Source: Bolinopsis microptera
Lineage: Eukaryota > Ctenophora > Tentaculata > Lobata > Bolinopsidae
Length of the DNA stretch: 64,000 bases
Assembly: GCF_026151205.1 (NCBI RefSeq)
Contig: NC_087072.1
Coordinates: 14,174,169-14,238,168, forward strand
Direction of reading: 5' to 3'
The notes below the pieces were generated by a model that saw only the letters and a list, made by a program, of their open reading frames with translations, was not told where the DNA came from and made no database searches. Of the stretch, positions 5,193 through 16,598 are shown in pieces; position 1 is the first letter of the stretch, and the number at the start of each line of letters is the position of its first letter. The position numbers and the translations under genes are program-made.

Positions 5193-7197
5193 TTAAGTGT
5201 TCACCAGAGCAGATATAATAGTTACACTAACAATAGAGTTTATAATAACAGCAGTACACAACCCAAACTGAACAAAAGTAGATCTACTGCCTGTGTTGTC
5301 TAGGTCCATGGTAACCATGGTAATGTCGTCACAGTCAGTTTCGTCACTGTCGTCCTTGTATTGGGTGTTGAGGGAATAGTAGAAATGGGGCGAGATACGC
5401 AAACAGATACACACTTTGCTCATGAACCTTCCAACCTGGGAAATATTACAGGATTAAAATGATAAATTTTCTGAAGAAAATCAGATATCCTCAGATTTGG
5501 GGCGTTCAAATATGAACAGATATAGACAATTCTTTATAATGTGCTGCCAATGAAAATATTATATACTGAAAAAATGTGTGTACTTTTTTAGGGAGATAAC
5601 AATTTGTATATAAAACTAAAATGTATAGAAACATAATATATGTGTCTATACAAAATTTAAAATGTATTTTATATAGCGAGCTGATATCAACAGCTCTATA
5701 GTCTATATAAAATACATTATCAGCTTTTTAGGATACAGTTTTGTGCAGAATACCTGTTGAGGATTCTCAAGAACGATGAAGAGAATACAGTAGACAGTGA
5801 TCTGTGTTGATATCACGTAGTAACATGACTCATGTGCATTTAACATGGACAGACCTGAGTAGAAACATGAAGTTAGTTTTCAAAAGACAATGAATTAGAG
5901 TCTACAAAAAGGTGTCAATAGTGAGCCCCACTTTAAAAAAATACAATATATTCGATCTTAATAGATTCTTTTGTAATCTAGAAGCTTAGATCAACGAACA
6001 GTTCACACTTTAAAAGGTAAAATTATCACAGATCATTATCACATCTTTCTCAAATTAGCACATGCTTATTTCTCACACAAGGAACTTACCGTTAACAATA
6101 TTTGTAATGCTCCCCATAAAAAGTAAACCAGCTGTAATCTTGTGCACCACTTCCCAAAGTCTTCTATACCTAGTTAAATATTTTACACGTTAAATGAATT
6201 AATATGCATTATGCATATATATAAATACCCATAACCCATACTCCACTAGGAGTGTATTTATTCTGGTTATCGTAATTCTATTATCATATTATATAATATA
6301 ATTATTACACACTATCACTGGTCCCCTGGTCGGCAATACTTCCTGTAACTTAACATCAATATTTACAAAAGTCACTTTATGATTTCTAGTAGTAGTAAGT
6401 TGAGCTGACAACCTATCAGGAAATTTACTCTTAAAAAGAATAATTGAGCCGAACATTAATTGAATATTTAATGCTTGAAATTTGTGGTAATCACGTTATT
6501 GCGACAAAGAGAACTGCTAATTTACAGTAATGTAGTGAACTGAACGACTCGTGAAACCAAACAAGGAATACTGATGAAACCTGGCTCGGAATGAGCTCTT
6601 ACAAATTACATGTAAATATAATGTGAATGCCCCAAATCCCCAATGTAGGGTTTTTTCCACAATTTTTCCTTTAAAAAACATTCATACATAAACAGACATA
6701 ATAAAACATAAACCAATTATGTATTCATATATAATGGAAATAATATTTACCTGGCTTCGAGAGGCGGTCTGAAGATTGCCATGATGATGTGAACAACAAG
6801 CACCACTAAAACTGATATCCCCAGAAGCTGATGCCGTTCTAACTCTATTGTTTCGAGAGCAATGTAAGCTACAATCACAGCTGCTACCACCAGAATACCT
6901 GATGATATTGTTATCTGCGTACTGTTAGGTTATCAGACCCATAATTAACATATGTATCCCAAATATTCGTATCAGTGCCTTTTGGAGAACGACTAAAATG
7001 TTAACATGACTGATGGAATATTCGAGAACCCCTTTCTATGACGTCATACTAGGTTTTGATTTCATTCTGTGAAACACAGTTGTAAGAAGGTTATCAGGTT
7101 CCTTGTGACCCCTGAAACCTAATAAACCTGAGTAATCTTCACATATAATTCATTTATCACGCTGCCAGCTTGAGTTTGTTAGTCTTTGTGGAAAGGA

Positions 7198-7305
7198 GTC
7201 GTTCACATATTACGTAATCAGCTGAGGGGGGGGGTTTCCGAATGATTACGCTAGTTGACATAGCTATGTGTAAAACTGATTACGGAGGGGGGGGGGTAAA
7301 AATTT
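7198..7305 (+). repeat. One-ended copy of the gtcgttcacatattacg element
   Basis: Begins gtcgttcacatattacgtaa like the foldback at 2125-2452, continues with a run of nine G and ends in a G-run followed by taaaaatttctcaaa. The inverted right end is absent. It sits 180 bp upstream of the first dehydrogenase start codon, inside intron 3 of gene A. Confidence 0.7.
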
Positions 7306-7480
7306 CTCAAAGCTGTAAACATTGTCCCTATCATATTTTAAGACACATTCGATGGCTTAAAAGTTAGTCGATCAAAAAAATGATTCGAACAGTTCTGAAT
7401 TTATGCGATTAGAATAGATAAGTTTCTGTTGTTATTTGAACTCTGATCAAAATTCATATAAATCTTCTTCACAGGACAGA

Positions 7481-8479
7481 ATGAACTACAAAATACCTCT
7501 CCTCATTGTTCTAATCTCCGCCTCCCTCTACTATTTCTTCTCACCTGCCTCCCCACTCTCAGACACACAACTCACAGAACATCTTAATGGTAAGGTAGTC
7601 CTCATCTGTGGAGCTAGCAGTGGTATAGGAGAGGAACTTGCTTACCAATTAGCTGCCCATGGAGCTAAACTCGTACTGGTGGCAAGAAGTCAGGATAAGT
7701 TAGACAAAGTTAGAGCAGAGTTGCTGAACAGAGGTACCCCAGATGAAAATGTCATGATAATATCCTTTGACTTCTCAGATGTGTCTAGAAGCAAAGAAGT
7801 CGTGGACCAAACATTGGAAAAGTTCGGAGGATTAGACTACTTGGTCTCCAATCATGCTGCAATGATTACAGGTCCCTTCTTGGCTCTGCCTTACCTTCAA
7901 GATCCCGACTATCTAGAGAGGATCTTCAGAGTAAACTTGTTCAGTCATATCCAACTTGCTGTTCACGCCCTCCCACATTTAGAGAAACGGAATGGTCACA
8001 TGTACTTTACTTCTTCCTTAGCTGGAGAACTACCTATGTATAGAAATAGCATTTATTGCTCAACAAAACATGCAATGAACGGGTTCTTTTACAGTCTCCA
8101 ACAGGAACTACTTGCTAGAGAGTCTTCTGTGTCTCTAACAATCGGCTCACTTGGTCTCATTTGGACGAAAGAGATGGCTCAGATGTATGCAAAGGGAAAC
8201 CTTTTTCCAGCCTGGGCCACAGGAAGTGCTGAAGAATGCTCTAGAGGAATGATGGAAGCGTATATAACGAGACCCCAAACCATGACATTTCCTAAACTTG
8301 CTGGCACTATCTATAGATCTTTTTGGTACTTTAAACCAAATTTCCATGAAGGTTTAATCAATACATTAAAACCCAAGGGTTCTGAGGGAACAGGATACAA
8401 AGAAGTGGTTGAAGCTACTGGTGCAAAAGATGATCTACGTAAAAAGATGGGATACCAACAAGGTTATGGAAGACAATGA
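7481..8479 (+). CDS. 11-beta-hydroxysteroid dehydrogenase 1-like SDR, copy 1
   Basis: A single-exon gene of 332 aa, close to the usual size of HSD11B1 relatives. An N-terminal hydrophobic anchor (residues 5-20) implies an ER-membrane enzyme. The cofactor-binding Rossmann motif is GASSGIG (44-50), and LVSNHAA (121-127) is the family counterpart of NNAG. The catalytic set is Asn152, Ser179, Tyr192 and Lys196 (YCSTK), and the SLAG and LGLI signatures follow. The family reduces or oxidises steroid or other small carbonyls with NADP(H); the substrate here is unknown. I chose ATG 7481 because it aligns with the other two copies; the longer frame begins at a TTG. A 3-prime splice-site-like ttcttcacag lies just before it, suggesting a 5-prime UTR intron or a trans-splice acceptor. 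First of three tandem copies nested in the long intron of gene A. Confidence 0.9.
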   Translation: MNYKIPLLIVLISASLYYFFSPASPLSDTQLTEHLNGKVVLICGASSGIGEELAYQLAAHGAKLVLVARSQDKLDKVRAELLNRGTPDENVMIISFDFSDVSRSKEVVDQTLEKFGGLDYLVSNHAAMITGPFLALPYLQDPDYLERIFRVNLFSHIQLAVHALPHLEKRNGHMYFTSSLAGELPMYRNSIYCSTKHAMNGFFYSLQQELLARESSVSLTIGSLGLIWTKEMAQMYAKGNLFPAWATGSAEECSRGMMEAYITRPQTMTFPKLAGTIYRSFWYFKPNFHEGLINTLKPKGSEGTGYKEVVEATGAKDDLRKKMGYQQGYGRQ

Positions 8480-10344
8480 TTGATTACCTGTACTAAATAT
8501 TTTTATTTTCAAATTTTAAGGTTCGTTTTTTTCGATGAATAGAATTGTTTTCGTTCAATTTGGTTTTATTTTTTGTTAAAACTGCGTTCGAATTGTCACC
8601 ATGAACTGAATTGTCCAGCAATAAAAGATCGTATAAAACGCCCTTTTTAACAAAGCATTTTTTTGAGAATAAATTAACGTTACTTAAGCTTTTACAGAAA
8701 CTACAATGCAAAAGCAGGTAAATTAACAGCATTTGATCCGGTTAAGGATTCAGCCTACTAATTAAAATAGCTATAGAGCTATACGAGTTTTGTCCTAAAA
8801 TCTGCCACTAATTTGTACTCGCAAATTATTTTGTACTCATGTTTCTGTTTTAGATTCAGATGTTTTCTTTTCCACTTGAATCATCAAACAAATTTAAAAC
8901 TATTTGAAGTTTGTAAAAGTATGTAGTGGTACATTGACATATTATCGTACTCGCATAAACCTATTAGAAATAAATATTCGTCGGACTATACGAAAGAGCC
9001 TATACTACACAAGCCTCTAAGAACTGATCAATCTGAAGCAGAGGATGGAAATACATATTGATAGTTTTCTCAAATATTTGCTGAATGAGAACATTTATAT
9101 TACATTTTATTTTATTTTATTTCATTCTACGTAAAAACAGCGATTTGTTTCAATGCGGTCAACTGCCTAGCAATAAATGTACAATATATGCCCTTGTGCA
9201 ATATATGCCCTTGAAAACTTTTTTACCAAATATTTCCTAGAAAAATAATTATAATTTCTGCCATTGATATCTACAGTCTAATGATCATCAGATTTAATGA
9301 TCATTTTGGAAACTTTAAAAGGCATACTTTAAATAGGTATGATCGAATGCTGTATTTCCATTTTTTAGACTTGATACAATTACAAAAGCATGAGTATGAC
9401 GTCGCTAGGTTTAAGATTCAATTGCATATTGGTAATCTTTCTTCGCTCTTATGAGTGGGTCGATCATATAGTTTGATAGTTGGGGACGAAGTGAGAAACG
9501 TCCTGTCTATGACAAAGGCGTGTGCAGAAACGTCGAGAACTATTTGTTTTGAAACACTGAGTGGAGACTCTCAATTGCATATTCTTGATAAAAATAATGA
9601 TTCATTATTAAAAATGCGTATTTATATGGTTTAATTAAGTTTAATAAAGTTTCATATATTCTACTTCCTACTGGGAACTACCTATACCGGCGATTTTAGT
9701 CTAATACTATCTAGATAGTTCGAGAAGTTAAACATGGTTTGAGACCTGCAAACCACCTGGTCAACCAGTTGTGGAAATATCCTTCTAGAATGGGGATCTC
9801 GAATTACAATCTGATAAAATTTCATACGATTTTCATGGAATTCCTCCCGTGAACTTTATACGTTTGGGTTAGAGTTTCTTTTTATCAGTTCAGTCGTTAT
9901 GGTACTCGAACTGCTAGTGTTTCAGCTTTTCCTGACAGTTGCATTCATCAGAACGTCATTGTACCGTTCAGATTCCAGTTTTTAATCAGTTTTTATCGCA
10001 CCTTTTAAATTTTCTTTATTGCACTTGCAGCAAGTGATGAAATCAAAATCTACTAGCATTGAGTCTTAACATCGATTTTCACCAGAATATGGTACTCCTA
10101 ACCTTGAGCAACAAATCTGGACATATGCCAATTTGAAATCTCGTAGCAACAAATATTTTTGAAACACACCCATTTGCAGGGTTTTGCTATCGGTCAATCG
10201 TCGCTATTTGAACTGATTTGGAACTAGTGCCGAACCCGATTTTCTTCTTGTTGATAGAAAGCATGCTAGATTTGAGTTTTAATTATTATTATTATTATTC
10301 ATTAAATAATATATGTATGCTCATTATAAAAACTGATTACAGGA
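8480..10344. other. Spacer between dehydrogenase copies 1 and 2
   Basis: AT-rich spacer with no exon. A block at about 9850-9960 (actttatacgtttgggtta, ctttttatcagtt, cgttatggtactcgaactgc) is shared with 11795-11900 in the next spacer, so it belongs to the duplicated unit that carries each dehydrogenase. The short open frame at 8493-8732 on the minus strand is not credible. Confidence 0.6.
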
Positions 10345-11349
10345 ATGAACTACAAAATACCTCTCCTCATTGTTCTAATCTCCGCCTCCCTCTACTATTT
10401 CTTCTCACCTGCCTCCCCACTCTCAGACACACAACTCACAGAACATCTTAATGGCAAGGTAGTCCTCATCTGTGGAGCTAGCAGTGGTATAGGAGAGGAA
10501 CTTGCTTACCAATTAGCTGCCCATGGAGCTAAACTCGTACTGGTGGCAAGAAGTCAGGATAAGTTAGACAAAGTTAGAACAGAAATAATAAAAAGAGGGG
10601 CCCCAGATGAAGATGTGATAACTATATCTCTTGACTTCTCAGATGTGTCTAAAAGCAAGGAGGTCGTGGACCAAACATTAGAAAAGTTCGGAGGACTTGA
10701 TTACCTGGTCTCTAACCACGCTGCAATATTTACTGGTCCCTTTCTGGGCCTGCCTCATCTTCAAGATCCTGAGTACATCGAGAAGATATTCAGAGTAAAC
10801 TTGTTCAGTCATATCCAACTTGCTGTTCATGCCCTGCCACATTTAGAGAAAAATAATGGTCACATCTACTTTACTTCTTCATTAGCTGGAGAGATACCAG
10901 TATATAGAAGCAGTTTATATTGCTCAACAAAACATGCAATGAACGGGTTCTTTTACAGTCTTCAACAAGAACTACTTGCTAGAGAGTCTTCTGTGTCTCT
11001 AACGATCGGCTCACTTGGTCTCATTTTAACAAAGGAAATATCTCAGTTGATGGCATTTGGACATCCTTACCCAGCGTGGGCCAGAGGAAGTTTGGAGGAG
11101 TGCTCAAGAGGAGTTATGGAAGCCTATATAACGAGACCCCAAACTATGACATATCCCAGAATCGCTGGTATGATTTATAGGGCCAACTGGTATTTTGACC
11201 CGCATTTTCATGAAGGCATAATTCAAAGATTCAAAGCTAAGGGGACTGAAGGAAAAGGTTACAAGGAAGTAGTAGAAAAGGTCAGTCAGACAGCTGATTT
11301 ACTCAAAAATATGGAGTACCAACTGGGGTATGGACCAGGAGATAAATAA
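10345..11349 (+). CDS. 11-beta-hydroxysteroid dehydrogenase 1-like SDR, copy 2
   Basis: Intronless, 334 aa, with the same anchor, GASSGIG cofactor motif, SNHAA, SSLAG and YCSTK catalytic motif as copy 1. Its first 78 codons differ from copy 1 at a single base, whereas downstream sequence (EIIKRGAPDEDVITIS) follows copy 3. That mosaic points to gene conversion or unequal crossing-over. The C-terminus ends MEYQLGYGPGDK. The start ATG is directly preceded by gattacagga, an acceptor-like site also present in copy 3 (tttacagga). It probably acts on the ER membrane as an NADP(H)-dependent carbonyl or hydroxysteroid oxidoreductase; the substrate is not predictable from sequence. Confidence 0.9.
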   Translation: MNYKIPLLIVLISASLYYFFSPASPLSDTQLTEHLNGKVVLICGASSGIGEELAYQLAAHGAKLVLVARSQDKLDKVRTEIIKRGAPDEDVITISLDFSDVSKSKEVVDQTLEKFGGLDYLVSNHAAIFTGPFLGLPHLQDPEYIEKIFRVNLFSHIQLAVHALPHLEKNNGHIYFTSSLAGEIPVYRSSLYCSTKHAMNGFFYSLQQELLARESSVSLTIGSLGLILTKEISQLMAFGHPYPAWARGSLEECSRGVMEAYITRPQTMTYPRIAGMIYRANWYFDPHFHEGIIQRFKAKGTEGKGYKEVVEKVSQTADLLKNMEYQLGYGPGDK

Positions 11350-12577
11350 GCATATTGATAACTAAAAAGTATATAAACTGTGGTGTGTATAAACTGTACT
11401 CAGATTCAATTATCTAAAGCCACAGGTTAACTGCAGCTTTAACAAATTGAATCTCTTTGATTTTTCCTTTTATATTTTAAAATAGAAATTTGCCTCCCAA
11501 AAATGTGTTTATTTAGCAGTATTCGGTTTCATAACCATAAATAGTTGAATAGTATGAATACCATTCATAATATACATTTGAGCTTCCTTGGATTGCTAGA
11601 GGACTAGGCTGACTTGTTAAGCGATATGCATTTAGCGCTTAGAATCAAGCTTACCTCTTTTCTGAAGAAAAGTAAAAAGTAATTTTAACAGCCATGTGCG
11701 TACCTGATAACGTTGCAGTGCACTAGTGAAGTGTATGCCTCAACGTCTGAATTGTCTCTTGTTCTTTATTATGTCGTAATATATTTATCGTCAATGAACC
11801 TTATACGTTTGAGTTGGGTTTCTTTTTATCAGTTGAATCGTTATGGTACTAGAACTGCTAATATTTTACCGGACAGTCATTGTTTTAATCAGACCATTTG
11901 CATTTTGTAACCATTTTTTATCGTTCCTTCAAAATGTTCACAATTTCTGCTGATTATGACACGCCTGAGTCATACTGATTATTAAATTATATAAACTTTA
12001 ATACCTCCTAGTATGCTGATAACATGATTTAAGTTGCGTTACAAACACTGCTTTCATTTTGATACTGATATTGATATCAAGCATTTTGTCCACAGTTTAA
12101 ATGTACTTTTGTGAACACATTGTAGTTTTATATTTCTTAATTGACATTAAAAGATTTGAGGAGACTGCGTTTAATTGCCATCCTGTAGCCTTAAGAATGG
12201 AACTGTAATAGATGCCCCTAAACACACAGGCACGCACTCCCCTTTGATACAGCAACCTAGAGGGTGTTCCAAAATAAATTATTAGTGTTAATAACTAAAG
12301 AGCAGTTTGAGAACGGCATTTAAAATTTACAGGGCTATCTAGGGAATGACCTCCGGATTTTTGGAAAAATGTCAGACCTCAAGTTCATTCGAGTGGCAGC
12401 CTCAAATTTTCTGATTGCTCGATCATTTTGTATGCTTATCGGCTTGTTTGTTTATCCTTATTTTCTATCTTAATAAGATCAATACAAGTAGAGCAATCTG
12501 TCCTGGTTCACGAAATATACAAAATACCGTACACTGAAATGGTACATATATTATGATAATCATTATCATTTACAGGA
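11350..12577. other. Spacer between dehydrogenase copies 2 and 3
   Basis: Contains the downstream flank shared with copy 3 (gagcttccttgg at about 11580 and 13759), an exon relic of gene A (separate entry) and the block shared with the previous spacer at 11795-11900. No complete gene is seen in the rest. Confidence 0.6.
11697..11790 (-). pseudogene. Relic of gene A exon 3, duplicated with the dehydrogenase
   Basis: The sequence from gcgtacctgata at about 11698 runs parallel to the donor side of gene A exon 3 at 13940 (gcgtacctgata, then cagtg.act, caacgtctg, tgtctcttg). In both places it follows a dehydrogenase by a similar distance and shares the flank word gagcttccttgg. Frame and later exon sequence have decayed and the exon acceptor is lost. 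It shows that the tandem duplication unit was larger than the dehydrogenase and once included this exon. Seen by eye at moderate identity. Confidence 0.55.
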
Positions 12578-13579
12578 ATGAACTACAAAGTTCCTCTCAT
12601 AATCATTCTAATCTCCGCCTCCCTCTACTATTTCTTCTCACCTGCCTCCCCACTCTCAGACAAACAACTCACAGAACATCTTAATGGTAAGGTAGTCCTC
12701 ATCTGTGGAGCTAGCAGTGGTATAGGAGAGGAACTTGCTTACCAATTAGCTGCCCATGGAGCTAAACTCGTCCTGGTGGCTAGGCATCAGGATAAGTTGG
12801 ACAAAGTTAGAACAGAAATAATAAAAAGAGGGGCCCCAGATGAAGATGTGATAACTATATCTCTTGACTTCTCAGATATGTCTAAAAGCAAGGAAGTCGT
12901 GGACCAAACATTGGAAAAGTTCGGAGGACTTGATTACCTGGTCTCTAACCACGCTGCAATATTTACTGGTCCCTTTCTGGCTCTGCCTCATCTTCAAGAT
13001 CCTGAGTACATCGAGAAGATATTCAGAGTAAACTTGTTTAGTCATATCCAACTTGCTGTTCATGCCCTCTCTCATCTAGAAAAACGGAATGGTCACATGT
13101 ACTTTACTTCTTCGTTAGCTGGAGAGATACCAGCATATACAAGTAGTTTATATTGCTCAACAAAACATGCAATGAACGGGTTCTTCTACAGTCTTCAACA
13201 AGAACTACTTGCTAGAGAGTCTTCTGTGTCTCTAACAATCGGCTCACTTGGTCTCATTTTGACAAAGGAAAGATCTGAGCTGTTACCATACGGACATCCC
13301 TATCCGGTATGGTCCAAAGGAAGTTTGGAGGAGTGCTCAAGAGGGATTATGGAGGCCTATATAACGAGACCCCAAACTCTGACATATCCCAGAATCGCTG
13401 GTATGATTTATAGGGCCAACTGGTATTTTGACCCGCATTTTCACGAGGGCATAATTCAAAGGTTCAAACCGAAGGGAACTAAGGGGAAAGGTTATAAAGA
13501 AGTTGTGGAAAAGGGTACGAGCGTTGATCAACGCATAAAGATGGGGTACCAACTGGGGTATGGACCAGGAGATAAATAA
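12578..13579 (+). CDS. 11-beta-hydroxysteroid dehydrogenase 1-like SDR, copy 3
   Basis: Intronless, 333 aa, with N-terminal membrane anchor, GASSGIG, SNHAA, SSLAG and YCSTK motifs intact. It differs from its neighbours in the substrate-side region after LGLI (LTKERSELLPYGHPYPVW) and near the C-terminus (VVEKGTSVDQRIKMGYQ), the positions where substrate or membrane contacts differ among HSD11B1 relatives. Start chosen by alignment with copies 1 and 2; an acceptor-like catttacag lies two bases before ATG. It lies 365 bp from exon 3 of gene A, which runs on the opposite strand. Confidence 0.9.
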   Translation: MNYKVPLIIILISASLYYFFSPASPLSDKQLTEHLNGKVVLICGASSGIGEELAYQLAAHGAKLVLVARHQDKLDKVRTEIIKRGAPDEDVITISLDFSDMSKSKEVVDQTLEKFGGLDYLVSNHAAIFTGPFLALPHLQDPEYIEKIFRVNLFSHIQLAVHALSHLEKRNGHMYFTSSLAGEIPAYTSSLYCSTKHAMNGFFYSLQQELLARESSVSLTIGSLGLILTKERSELLPYGHPYPVWSKGSLEECSRGIMEAYITRPQTLTYPRIAGMIYRANWYFDPHFHEGIIQRFKPKGTKGKGYKEVVEKGTSVDQRIKMGYQLGYGPGDK

Positions 13580-14073
13580 ATATTTTGCGATTATTAACTG
13601 TAACTACAATTTAAATCAAATCTTTCATTTTTTTACTTTTTATTCTATTGAAATTTTTCTTCAAAAATTGTGCATTTAATTAGATTTGTTTGTTTTTTTT
13701 AAAATGCTGTAAGTGGTCGTAATTATAAATCGTTGATCATTGTTCATTTTGAACCGTAGAGCTTCCTTGGGCCCTTTCAGGTCAAGGCTTAATTGTAAAG
13801 CGCTATTTTTAATAAAAAAGAATAAATTATTTTTTAAAGTTCACCTGGAGTATTTAAATTAACAATAATTGTGTTTTCGATCATAAAAGGTTTTCTAACT
13901 TGGAACTTTTTGATGCAATGTAAATATCCATGTAATGAGCGTACCTGATAAATACCCAGTGTACTTGCGAATAGAGAACCACAACGTCTGTCTCTTGAAG
14001 TAGTACTTAGCATACCGCGCAATAAACACGGCTAACGGTGTTAAGTTTAACCAAACGAGTACCATGAGAATAC

Positions 14074-15360
14074 CTGACGGAGGATTTATTGGTCTCTGGT
14101 TTGAGGAGAATCATAGCTCTCAATCAAACATCATCATCATTACCGTTAGAGATCATTATTTGTAGAGTTATCTGCATTCATTTTTATGGACCAAAAATAT
14201 TAAATGAGAAACCTTACTCAGTGCAGTGAGATCATTTTCAACTGTTTAGTACTTAAAAAGACATTTCATTACAACCTAGCCTTTGATTATGTTCCTAATT
14301 TTTGTCCATTAATACTGAACTAACATTCAACATACCATGAACTTTGATAAGGTTGTGGGTCTGAGTAGAGATGCATCTAGGAGTATTCCTATACAAGGGT
14401 ACAAGGTCCCGGCTAACAGTCGGGTTAACATGGTGCATGTATAACGGCTTTATATCGCCTCCCTCGTCTTCTGGTCTGATATTACCTGTAAATGCAGCTG
14501 TAAATGTTTTGCTATGAAGAGATGTGTATTACATTATATAATATACTTTTATTGCTTCTGAGCAACAGTTTCATGTTATAAAATATGTAATGCTATAAAT
14601 TATTTTATGTGAATGTTGATTTATAGTTATTATTATATATATTGTATGTTTATTCGTCTCCTTTTCTGTGGAGCTCTGCCGCTGATATCGACTCCTACAA
14701 ACACACATTTGAACTTTACCAACCTTGCAACGCTAAAGTTATGGAGTACATATGAATGCTAGGCTGAGTGCCCACTCAGTATTACTATTACACTGGTCCC
14801 CTTGTGTGAGCCAAGTAATTGTCGTGCTGAACTCACAACAACTTGCCAATATCAATAAGGGGTCACAATATTGTACCTGGGGGTCCATATTGCACCTGGA
14901 CTAAACTTTTAGTACTTGCTCCAAGTGTGATATTAACAGAAAAGTTCTTGAGTAAAACAGTAAAAAGCTCATAAGTCAGGGTGTGAGGTGGAAAGGAGCT
15001 AAACTTAACATAATCACGCTACAAAACTTACATTATATTATATAGGCCATGTAGTAAAAAAGTGAACATGCAGAAACAAGGCATGAGAAGTTATTTCCTG
15101 TTAGTATTAAGCAACCAGTAATGGCAATCCGCTTAAAACGGTACAAGGTATTATATATTAGTACTGATTACGTACGAACAATAATACAATATGGAACCCA
15201 CGATTTCAGTTTCTTGCTTAACATTGCAGTACAATAAGGACTTCGCCGTGCTGAAGTTCTCCATTACAATGTGTAATGATATCATAACTCATAACGGATA
15301 ACAATAAGAACGTTTTAATAAAATAAAAGGCAAAGTGCCATGTCATGGGATGACGGATAT
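14074..15360. other. Intron 2 of gene A, unique part
   Basis: AT-rich intronic sequence with no exon or recognisable element. A phrase around 14787-14800 (cactggtcccct) resembles one near 6317-6330, perhaps a shared old repeat. Confidence 0.4.
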
Positions 15361-15735
15361 ACTATACTGTGTGTACCTTACACAGTGTGCACTATACTAT
15401 ACTATGTGTACACTACACAGTGTGTACTATACTATACTATGTGTACACTACACAGTGTGCACTATACTATACTATGTGTACACTACACGTCTACACTGTG
15501 TGCACTATACTATGTGTACACTACACAGTGTGCACTATACTATACTATGTGTACACTACACAGTGTGCACTATACTATACTATGTGTACACTACACAGTG
15601 TGCAATATACTATACTGTGTGTACACTACACAGTGTGCACTGTGTGCACTATACTATGTGTACACTACACAGTGTGCAATATACTATACTGTGTGTACAC
15701 TACACTGTGTGCACTGTGTGCACTGTGTGCACTTC
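15361..15735. repeat. 35-bp tandem repeat rich in gtgtacac palindromes
   Basis: About ten copies of a 35-bp unit (cagtgtgcactatactatac plus tatgtgtacactaca), with exact 35-bp spacing between units at 15383, 15418 and 15453 and length variants towards the right end. Each unit contains the self-complementary words gtgtacac and gtgcac, so either strand can form hairpins. It lies in intron 2 of gene A, ending about 40 bp from the exon 2 splice donor at 15773. Open frames across it on the plus strand are periodic translations of the repeat. Confidence 0.92.
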
Positions 15736-16598
15736 TCACTAAGCTTGCGCCCAAACAAATGGAGAGAACCTACCTATTCCGAACATCAGATAGACTGGCG
15801 TTTTGTGTAAAGTATCAAAGGGATACGAGAGTTCGATAGATTTCGTGATGTTCGCTTGAACTATTCCATCTTTATAAGTTATGGAACTATCTGCAATAGT
15901 CTCCAACTCTTCTTGAAATATTGTTGAACTATAACCTGAAATGATAGGTTGGTTGAAAATTATCAAAAGATAAGACACACGTGTCAATGTACATATAATA
16001 TTGTATAATTTATGAAAACTCATAAAAATATTGTGCTACACTTGCATAGATTTAAACAAGATCAGTACCATGAGGGTCAAAAAGGGGAGCTGCGATGAAG
16101 GACTGAGCATAAGAGTCTTTATAGACTGCTACAATATCGTCATATCCCATAAGAGTGTCGTTACTGAAGCCTATAGCTACCCACTCAGTCTCCTTTATTG
16201 TAGCTGTTATGTTTAGGTACAAATCGTCTCCTGGTATTTTAATTAGTGTACACATAGTTACACACAAATCTCGCGAAAGAAAATATAAATTTCATCAAAG
16301 TAAACCGTTCAAAGGAAATGATTTTGGTGTAGAAAGCCATCTAACGTGCGAACGACTAAAACTTAAAAGTAATTGTATGTATGAATTATGATACACAAAT
16401 ACACGTAAAAAATCTCAAATAAATACCAGGTAACAATTCCAAATATAAATCCCCGTTTTTACCTGAAATGGCCCAAAAGAAAGTTCCTTCATCTCCGTGA
16501 TAACACCCATTAGCAGATTTGGGTTTCAATATAGTGCCATGTTGCTGTGTTGCTGCAAACAATATCACCAGTATAACACTCCGAAGATAAGATCCCAT

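What the first reader, a model, noticed from the sequence alone, without database searches (positions are those of the whole stretch)
6899..13944. Array of three intronless dehydrogenase genes nested antisense in a single intron
Gene A exon 3 ends at 13945 and exon 4 begins at 6898 (minus strand). Exons on both sides match the paralogue exactly in length. In the paralogue (gene B) the same intron is 162 bp. In gene A it is about 7 kb and carries three complete 11-beta-HSD1-like genes on the other strand. HSD11B1 genes of vertebrates have introns; these have none, so a retrocopy that landed in the intron and was then amplified is a reasonable reading (inference).
Basis: partly seen in the sequence, partly recalled or inferred. 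Interest (0 to 1): 0.8.

Follow-up and report, generated by a model that had tools for sequence, protein, structure and literature searches.

The report
Dehydrogenase gene trio inside an intron
In what is almost certainly a comb-jelly genome, three working-looking enzyme genes lie backwards inside one enlarged intron of a membrane-protein gene; the layout is real, but genes nested in introns are common in comb jellies, and relatives of these genes sit in introns of other genes too.

Summary
Gene A (minus strand, 9 predicted exons, 436 aa, DOMON plus b561-like part) has a 7,046-bp intron 5 (6899-13944). Its tandem paralogue B has 162 bp there, with identical flanking exon lengths and phases. 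The intron holds three complete 11-beta-HSD1-like SDR genes with single-exon coding frames on the other strand; copies 1 and 3 are 81% and 90% identical to copy 2, dN/dS about 0.23.

The retrocopy reading is not specifically supported. Of the 13 other family genes found, 11 also have intron-free coding frames, one has a coding intron and one carries a stop, so the gene that entered was probably already intronless. Copies 2 and 3 share an upstream 73-bp element that the genome search found only there, pointing to DNA-level duplication.

Two relatives are nested antisense in unrelated genes (a kinesin, ATR), and a pair probably in a TAF6-like gene. The genome fits the ctenophore Bolinopsis microptera; nested genes are common in the ctenophore Hormiphora (2,357 reported). 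I file this as a new member of a known kind. Less ordinary: synonymous divergence is strongly reduced over the first ~110 codons in three clusters, suggesting 5'-polar gene conversion. No RNA was available.

The parts
16463..16598 (-). gene A exon 1 (start codon, signal-peptide-like start by eye)
   Evidence: hand-built model
16069..16230 (-). gene A exon 2 (DOMON)
15774..15935 (-). gene A exon 3 (DOMON)
14336..14485 (-). gene A exon 4
   Evidence: 129 nt as in gene B
6899..13944 (-). gene A intron 5, 7,046 nt, holding the array
   Evidence: 162 nt in gene B
   Evidence: 148 nt as in gene B
6090..6169 (-). gene A exon 7
   Evidence: 80 nt as in gene B
5754..5854 (-). gene A exon 8
   Evidence: 101 nt as in gene B
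5193..5435 (-). gene A exon 9 with stop
7481..8479 (+). SDR copy 1, 332 aa, 11-beta-HSD1-like, single coding exon
10345..11349 (+). SDR copy 2, 334 aa, 11-beta-HSD1-like, single coding exon
12578..13579 (+). SDR copy 3, 333 aa, 11-beta-HSD1-like, single coding exon
7473..7474 (+). acceptor-like AG 6 nt before the start codon of copy 1 (TTCTTCACAG)
   Evidence: score 8.3; 1 of 32 control windows as high; candidate trans-splice or 5'-UTR-intron acceptor, not proven
10341..10342 (+). acceptor-like AG 2 nt before the start codon of copy 2
   Evidence: (score 3.0; 10 of 32 control windows as high): weak
12574..12575 (+). acceptor-like AG 2 nt before the start codon of copy 3
   Evidence: (score 6.9; 4 of 32 control windows as high): moderate
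9850..9922 (+). 73-bp element upstream of copy 2, repeated upstream of copy 3; the genome search found no other copy
11795..11866 (+). second copy of that element (88%), upstream of copy 3
9425..9576 (.). dispersed short repeat with inverted parts (MITE-like) between copies 1 and 2
   Evidence: 73 matches listed, 40 of 398 candidates scored
17580..21015 (-). gene B, tandem paralogue of gene A, 9 exons, 412 aa, no array

Best explanation
This is a nested-gene arrangement in a ctenophore, most likely Bolinopsis microptera. A gene of an already intron-poor 11-beta-HSD1-like SDR family (hydrophobic N-terminal anchor by eye, intact Ser-Tyr-Lys active site) entered intron 5 of a DOMON/cytochrome-b561-like gene in antisense orientation, most likely after that host gene had split from its tandem paralogue. 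The SDR gene then multiplied to three copies by DNA-level tandem duplication inside the intron, and repeated gene conversion has kept the 5' coding third alike. The host still works by splicing out the 7-kb intron. The SDR copies are made from their own promoters on the other strand; since ctenophores use spliced leaders, their mRNAs may get their 5' ends by trans-splicing at the AG just before the start codon. Shown here: anatomy, intactness, selection, paralogue pattern, nesting elsewhere. Inferred: splicing across the array, independent promoters, trans-splicing, gene conversion as the cause of the 5' likeness, and the DNA-level route of insertion.
For: Exon lengths and phases on both sides equal those of gene B. 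A-versus-B divergence shows constraint on both sides of the array (exons 1-5 pS 0.70, pN 0.28; exons 6-9 pS 0.68, pN 0.32). Array copies: dS 0.47, 0.56, 0.25 with dN/dS 0.24, 0.23, 0.22, far below the near-saturated A-B synonymous divergence, so the array copies diverged after A and B. Family in genome: of 16 genes at 40% identity or more, the array's three included, 14 have a single open coding frame. Copies 2 and 3 share a 73-bp upstream element that the genome search finds only in this intron. Other antisense nests: the C13 copy between kinesin exons matching PF00225 positions 175-204 and 206-243; L016 between an exon matching ATR (2.8e-11) and the ATR kinase frame (1.7e-122). Species: 264.65 Mb and C1 of 26,206,493 bases, the longest of the nine large contigs whose length I saw, against 265 Mb, 13 chromosomes, largest 26.2 Mb for B. 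microptera (PMC11797021 Table 1, passage). Ctenophore-type spliced-leader donors: 111 matches, 0 in the reversed-pattern control.
Against: No RNA evidence of any kind. Gene A itself is not reported for the Pfam b561 model, only gene B is (25.4 bits, cut-off 23), and gene B has no PDB sequence match at E 1. Apart from the 73-bp element, homology among the array copies stops within a few bases of the coding ends, which retroposed units would also show. In the tree of codons 111-300 the order of copy 1, C13 and copies 2+3 is unresolved, so the C13 gene could even derive from the array. The start-codon acceptor signal is only modestly enriched across 22 SDR genes (8 of 22 at score 5 or more, against 15.5% of 704 control windows), and copy 2 scores below that. 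The species name rests on assembly statistics and leader sequences, not on a named record; the same table gives 346 scaffolds where this assembly has 232 contigs, and a gapped leader pattern found nothing.
Confidence: 0.75

Rival explanations
1. Retrocopy: a spliced SDR mRNA was reverse-transcribed into intron 5 and then amplified. The family's dispersal into introns on several chromosomes would reflect repeated retroposition of short, leader-spliced mRNAs.
For: Single-exon coding frames; relatives scattered on C1, C5, C6, C10, C13; homology between the array and the C13 copy begins exactly at the start codon; one relative (L011) has a coding intron at the anchor/Rossmann junction.
Against: No multi-exon parent closer than L011 (51% identity) was listed; the intron-free coding frame is shared by nearly the whole family found. 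Acceptor-like AGs stand right before the array start codons, where a copied trans-spliced mRNA should carry the leader end; an ATTTGAG string occurs upstream of copy 2 but some 70 nt away (by eye). Copies 2 and 3 share an upstream element outside the coding part. No poly(A) tract or target-site duplication was seen by eye in the printed flanks; no systematic search was made.
Confidence: 0.2
2. Split host: exons 1-5 and 6-9 of gene A are no longer joined; the array broke the gene into a secreted DOMON half and a dead b561 half.
For: The intron is about 43 times longer than in gene B; no transcript data.
Against: Open frame, GT-AG ends, phases and exon lengths preserved; pN and pS similar on both sides.
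Confidence: 0.07
3. The 5' likeness of the copies is due to constraint (codon use, RNA structure or regulatory sites at the gene start) and not to gene conversion.
For: It affects the same first ~110 codons in three clusters; one of five distant pairs tested also shows a dip (arr2-C6d, p 0.014).
Against: Distant pairs (array against C6 or C1x) have high synonymous divergence there (pS 0.51-0.96 in the first two 40-codon windows), and four of the five distant pairs tested show no significant dip.
Confidence: 0.2

Closest known systems
Nested intronic genes of the ctenophore Hormiphora californensis (PMC8527503; abstract, passages and sections 31, 37, 38 read)
   Same: Complete genes inside single introns of other genes, several per host in the example figure's legend; 2,357 such genes in 1,654 hosts reported with 14,265 annotated protein-coding genes.
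   Different: Here the three nested genes are tandem paralogues with intron-free coding frames, and the same family is nested in at least two other unrelated hosts.
11-beta-hydroxysteroid dehydrogenase type 1 (SDR26C; family name recalled)
   Same: N-terminal anchor (by eye), Rossmann core, S-Y-K active site; best PDB matches by sequence, 1.7e-34 against 9.9e-24 for the first non-HSD11B1 row.
   Different: Single coding exon; cofactor-loop Lys of GASKGIG is Ser (GASSGIG); the listed alignments to HSD11B1 stop at residue 234-270 of 334; substrate unknown.
Henikoff 1986 Drosophila gene within a gene (title seen in the reference list of PMC8527503; paper itself not seen)
   Same: Unrelated gene on the opposite strand nested in another gene.
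   Different: One nested gene there (recalled); three paralogues here.

Membership tests
Nested intronic gene | gene lies wholly within one intron of another gene | tested here: met
   CDS 7481-13579 inside intron 6899-13944; transcript ends unknown
Nested intronic gene | host and nested gene both functional | tested here: inconclusive
   both constrained; no RNA
Retrocopy | parent gene with introns lost in the copy | tested here: not met
   11 of the 13 other family genes found have intron-free coding frames; only L011 (51%) has a coding intron; the search may miss short, diverged exons
Retrocopy | poly(A) tract and target-site duplication | tested here: inconclusive
   not seen by eye in the printed flanks; no systematic search; such marks could have decayed at dS 0.25-0.56
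11-beta-HSD1-like SDR | best match among solved proteins | tested here: met
   first 23 PDB rows are 11-beta-HSD1
11-beta-HSD1-like SDR | SDR glycine motif and S-Y-K catalytic residues | tested here: met
   CGASSGIG, S178/S179, Y192 and K196 invariant in all 10 aligned members
11-beta-HSD1-like SDR | corticosteroid or other steroid substrate | not testable with these tools
   needs an assay
Spliced-leader trans-spliced gene | leader on the mRNA 5' end | not testable with these tools
   leader-like loci exist in the genome; acceptor-like AG before the start codons; no RNA
DOMON-cytochrome b561 protein | both domains over Pfam cut-offs | tested here: inconclusive
   gene B both; gene A DOMON only

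The most novel reading that the evidence does not exclude
A membrane-anchored SDR family in ctenophores repeatedly colonises introns of unrelated genes in antisense orientation, multiplies there, and its scattered copies exchange sequence by a gene conversion that always starts at the 5' end of the coding sequence, even between chromosomes (array and C13). If so, start sites would be the preferred places of recombination in ctenophores, readable from paralogues alone.
Probability: 0.25. Interest if true: 0.6.

Novelty: new member of a known kind. Interest (0 to 1): 0.38.

Why it matters
It is a clean example of how intron growth, nested genes and tandem duplication combine: an intron that is 162 bp in the paralogue is 7 kb here without visible damage to the host's coding sequence. 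The paralogue pair A/B and the two or three other antisense nests of the same family make it a test bed for how nested genes arise (DNA-level or via RNA) in an early-branching animal phylum with spliced leaders. The 5'-polar likeness of paralogues is a testable lead on where recombination starts in ctenophores.

Tried and rejected
Recent retrocopy at this site: rejected as the leading reading, because most relatives found have intron-free coding frames and one is nested elsewhere. Assembly artefact or collapsed haplotypes: rejected, since copies 1 and 3 differ from copy 2 by 19% and 10% in protein, flanks differ and the window has no N. An A-like gene as the common host of all SDR clusters: rejected; of 16 rows matching gene A, 15 lie in the A/B region of C1 and one is a single-frame relative on C2. 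C6 copies a and b as nested in an acyl-CoA dehydrogenase gene: rejected; they lie about 0.5 kb beyond what looks like its last exon, on the same strand (last exon by eye); a wider host is not excluded. A GFP search for placing the organism gave no match and the control rang nowhere, so it says nothing. An iGluR protein against the PDB did not name a species. In NCBIfam none of the 25 rows shown per copy passes its curated cut-off. TAF6 as host of the C5 pair: the downstream exon matches TAF6_C in Pfam (2.3e-7) but nothing in the PDB at E 0.1; upstream exons match nothing in Pfam, singly at E 0.05 or joined at E 1, and the first has no PDB match at E 0.1; so it is only probable. An RGS-domain exon lies upstream of L010 but no downstream host exon was identified. 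AlphaFold on the three copies gave mean pLDDT 53.9, so no fold search was made.

Counts: flanks were looked at for 15 of the 16 family genes (L013 not), by eye on open frames plus Pfam for chosen exons; the output was cut and partly re-shown. Antisense nesting well supported for 5 genes at 3 loci (array x3, L005, L016), probable for 2 (L014, L015), apparently not nested for 2 (L007, L008), undetermined for 6 (L004, L006, L009, L010, L011, L012). Against 16.5% nested genes in Hormiphora (2357 of 14265, my division) this is not a clear excess. The split at alignment column 110 was chosen; 16 of the 45 pairs were tested, and pairs are not independent. The acceptor model was trained on only 16 introns of genes A and B.
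Full report
What is there. Gene A on the minus strand has nine predicted exons and encodes 436 aa; gene B, about 1 kb upstream of it on the same strand, has nine exons and 412 aa. Gene B matches DOMON and cytochrome b561 in Pfam; gene A matches DOMON and is not reported for b561 at E 0.001, although the two align along their length. Exons 2, 5, 6, 7 and 8 have equal lengths in both genes (162, 129, 148, 80, 101 nt); exons 1, 3, 4 and 9 differ.

The array. Three SDR genes lie on the opposite strand at 7481-8479, 10345-11349 and 12578-13579. Copies 3 and 1 are 90% and 81% identical to copy 2. All match PF00106. Copy 2's best solved relatives are 11-beta-HSD1 (1.7e-34), the first other protein coming at 9.9e-24. 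dN/dS between copies is 0.22-0.24. Serine, tyrosine and lysine of the active site are invariant in ten aligned family members.

Is the host still a gene? Both halves of gene A show constraint against gene B: pS 0.70 and pN 0.28 for exons 1-5, pS 0.68 and pN 0.32 for exons 6-9. Frames, phases and splice ends are kept. This supports splicing across the array but does not prove it. A-B synonymous divergence is near saturation, that within the array is 0.25-0.56, so the array copies diverged from each other after A and B did.

Which organism. The genome has 264.65 Mb in 232 contigs; C1 has 26,206,493 bases, the longest of the nine large contigs whose length I saw. Table 1 of PMC11797021 gives 265 Mb, 13 chromosomes, a largest chromosome of 26.2 Mb and 346 scaffolds for Bolinopsis microptera (passages seen); the scaffold number does not agree. 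The 3' part of the Hormiphora leader with its donor GT (leader from PMC8527503) has two 3-mismatch matches and none in the reversed control; a gapped exact version has none. A pattern taken from one of these loci gives 111 matches with at most 2 mismatches and none in the control, in regular arrays on C3 and C5 and clusters on C13. A ctenophore is therefore nearly certain and the species very likely.

The family. A search with copy 2 at E 1e-5 gives 33 matches (48 candidates scored). They include 16 genes at 40% identity or more, the array's three among them; three further rows (L018, L026, L030) are second pieces of L016, L014 and L015. Fourteen of the 16 read as one open frame with a start codon (L005 is shorter at its end, 306 aa), L011 has one coding intron of GT-AG type at the junction of anchor and Rossmann domain, and L013 carries a stop. 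The search can see genes exon by exon: with the gene A protein, 6 of gene B's 9 exons were listed at E 0.001, 4 of them at 1e-5, at 43-61% identity. An intron-bearing parent much closer than L011 would probably have been seen. In the tree of 17 proteins the array forms a group (81/91), with copies 2 and 3 together (97/99); its relation to the C13 copy and the four C6 copies is unresolved. A tree of codons 111-300 groups the array with C13 (94/94) but leaves the order of copy 1, C13 and copies 2+3 open; a tree of codons 1-110 groups the three array copies (89/95).

Nesting is not unique to this site. The C13 relative L005 lies antisense between kinesin exons that match PF00225 positions 175-204 and 206-243, with a GTAAGT donor and an ACAG acceptor (the upstream exon scores 26.4, under the cut-off of 29.3). 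L016 lies antisense between an exon that matches ATR at 2.8e-11 and the kinase frame that matches ATR at 1.7e-122; two nearer flanking exons were recognised by eye against recalled ATR sequence. The pair L014/L015 lies upstream of a TAF6_C exon (2.3e-7; no PDB match), but the 5' half of that host has no database match. In Hormiphora 2,357 nested genes are reported with 14,265 protein-coding genes, so nesting as such is ordinary for the phylum.

How it arose. Copies 2 and 3 share a 73-bp element 0.4-0.7 kb upstream of the start codon which the genome search finds only in these two places; this favours DNA-level tandem duplication. Otherwise homology between copies ends within a few bases of the coding sequence, while C6 copies a and b share about 280 bp upstream and stretches downstream. 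Because conversion keeps the coding part young, old flanks beyond recognition are expected; retroposed units would look similar, so this point is open.

5'-polar likeness. In 40-codon windows pS between copies 1 and 2 runs 0.00, 0.04, 0.35, 0.56, 0.33, 0.26, 0.42, 0.77, 0.66. The same trend is found in the C6 cluster, in the C1x pair (L009/L012: 0.30, 0.00, 0.22, then 0.56-0.79) and between the array and C13 (0.26-0.39 in the first two windows, 0.38-0.91 later). In a permutation test all 11 recent pairs tested have fewer synonymous changes before column 110, 9 of them at p about 0.001 or less; copies 2/3 (0.071) and C6a/C6b (0.055) do not reach 0.05. Of five distant pairs one reaches p 0.014 and four do not reach 0.05. 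The cut was chosen after seeing the data and pairs are not independent. Gene conversion that starts near the gene's 5' end is the best reading; constraint is the rival.

5' ends of the SDR genes. Acceptor-like AGs lie 6, 2 and 2 nt before the start codons of copies 1, 2 and 3. A small acceptor model gives scores 8.3, 3.0 and 6.9; over 22 SDR genes 8 score 5 or more against 15.5% of 704 control windows. Trans-splicing is known to be common in ctenophores (leader on 56% of Hormiphora Iso-Seq reads), so it is a fair guess here, not a result.

In print. I searched the held library for ctenophore nested genes and spliced leaders, Bolinopsis genomes (10 of 119 listed), ctenophore or retrogene SDRs (12 of 666 listed), nested genes with tandem duplication (12 of 43 listed, none, five), gene-conversion polarity and Bolinopsis nested genes (none). 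No title or start of abstract listed there describes this array. Three papers were opened: PMC8527503 (abstract, passages, sections 31, 37, 38), PMC11797021 and PMC9859523 (passages only). PMC9859523 proposes active retrogenes in two other human SDR families and has no hit for HSD11B1.

Noticed in passing
G000:C13:6732395-6734245 (L039): A single-coding-exon SDR of the same family (L005) lies antisense in a kinesin motor-domain intron.
   Followed up: yes
G000:C6, about 12373690-12378300 (L042): Another single-coding-exon member (L016) lies antisense in an intron of the ATR kinase gene.
   Followed up: yes
G000:C5, about 13058050-13062250 (L045): Two tandem members (L014, L015) lie antisense upstream of a TAF6_C exon, probably inside a TAF6-like gene.
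   Followed up: partly
G000:C3:13511044-13533399, C5:21341864-21352033, C13:12783472-12952513: Arrays or clusters of spliced-leader-like donor sequences, with steps of mostly 591 bp on C3 and about 858 bp on C5.
   Followed up: partly
window 9425-9576: Short dispersed repeat with inverted parts, 73 matches listed genome-wide, between SDR copies 1 and 2.
   Followed up: partly
window, about 15361-15730: Long simple tandem repeat (by eye) inside intron 3 of gene A.
   Followed up: no
L011 (G000:C1, about 12353620-12354931): The only one of the 16 family genes in which I found a coding intron, phase 0, between membrane anchor and Rossmann domain.
   Followed up: yes
G000:C2:10014597-10015412: A single-frame (437 aa) relative of the multi-exon DOMON/b561 gene A; likewise 10 of 32 iGluR matches lie in open frames of over 900 aa.
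   Followed up: no
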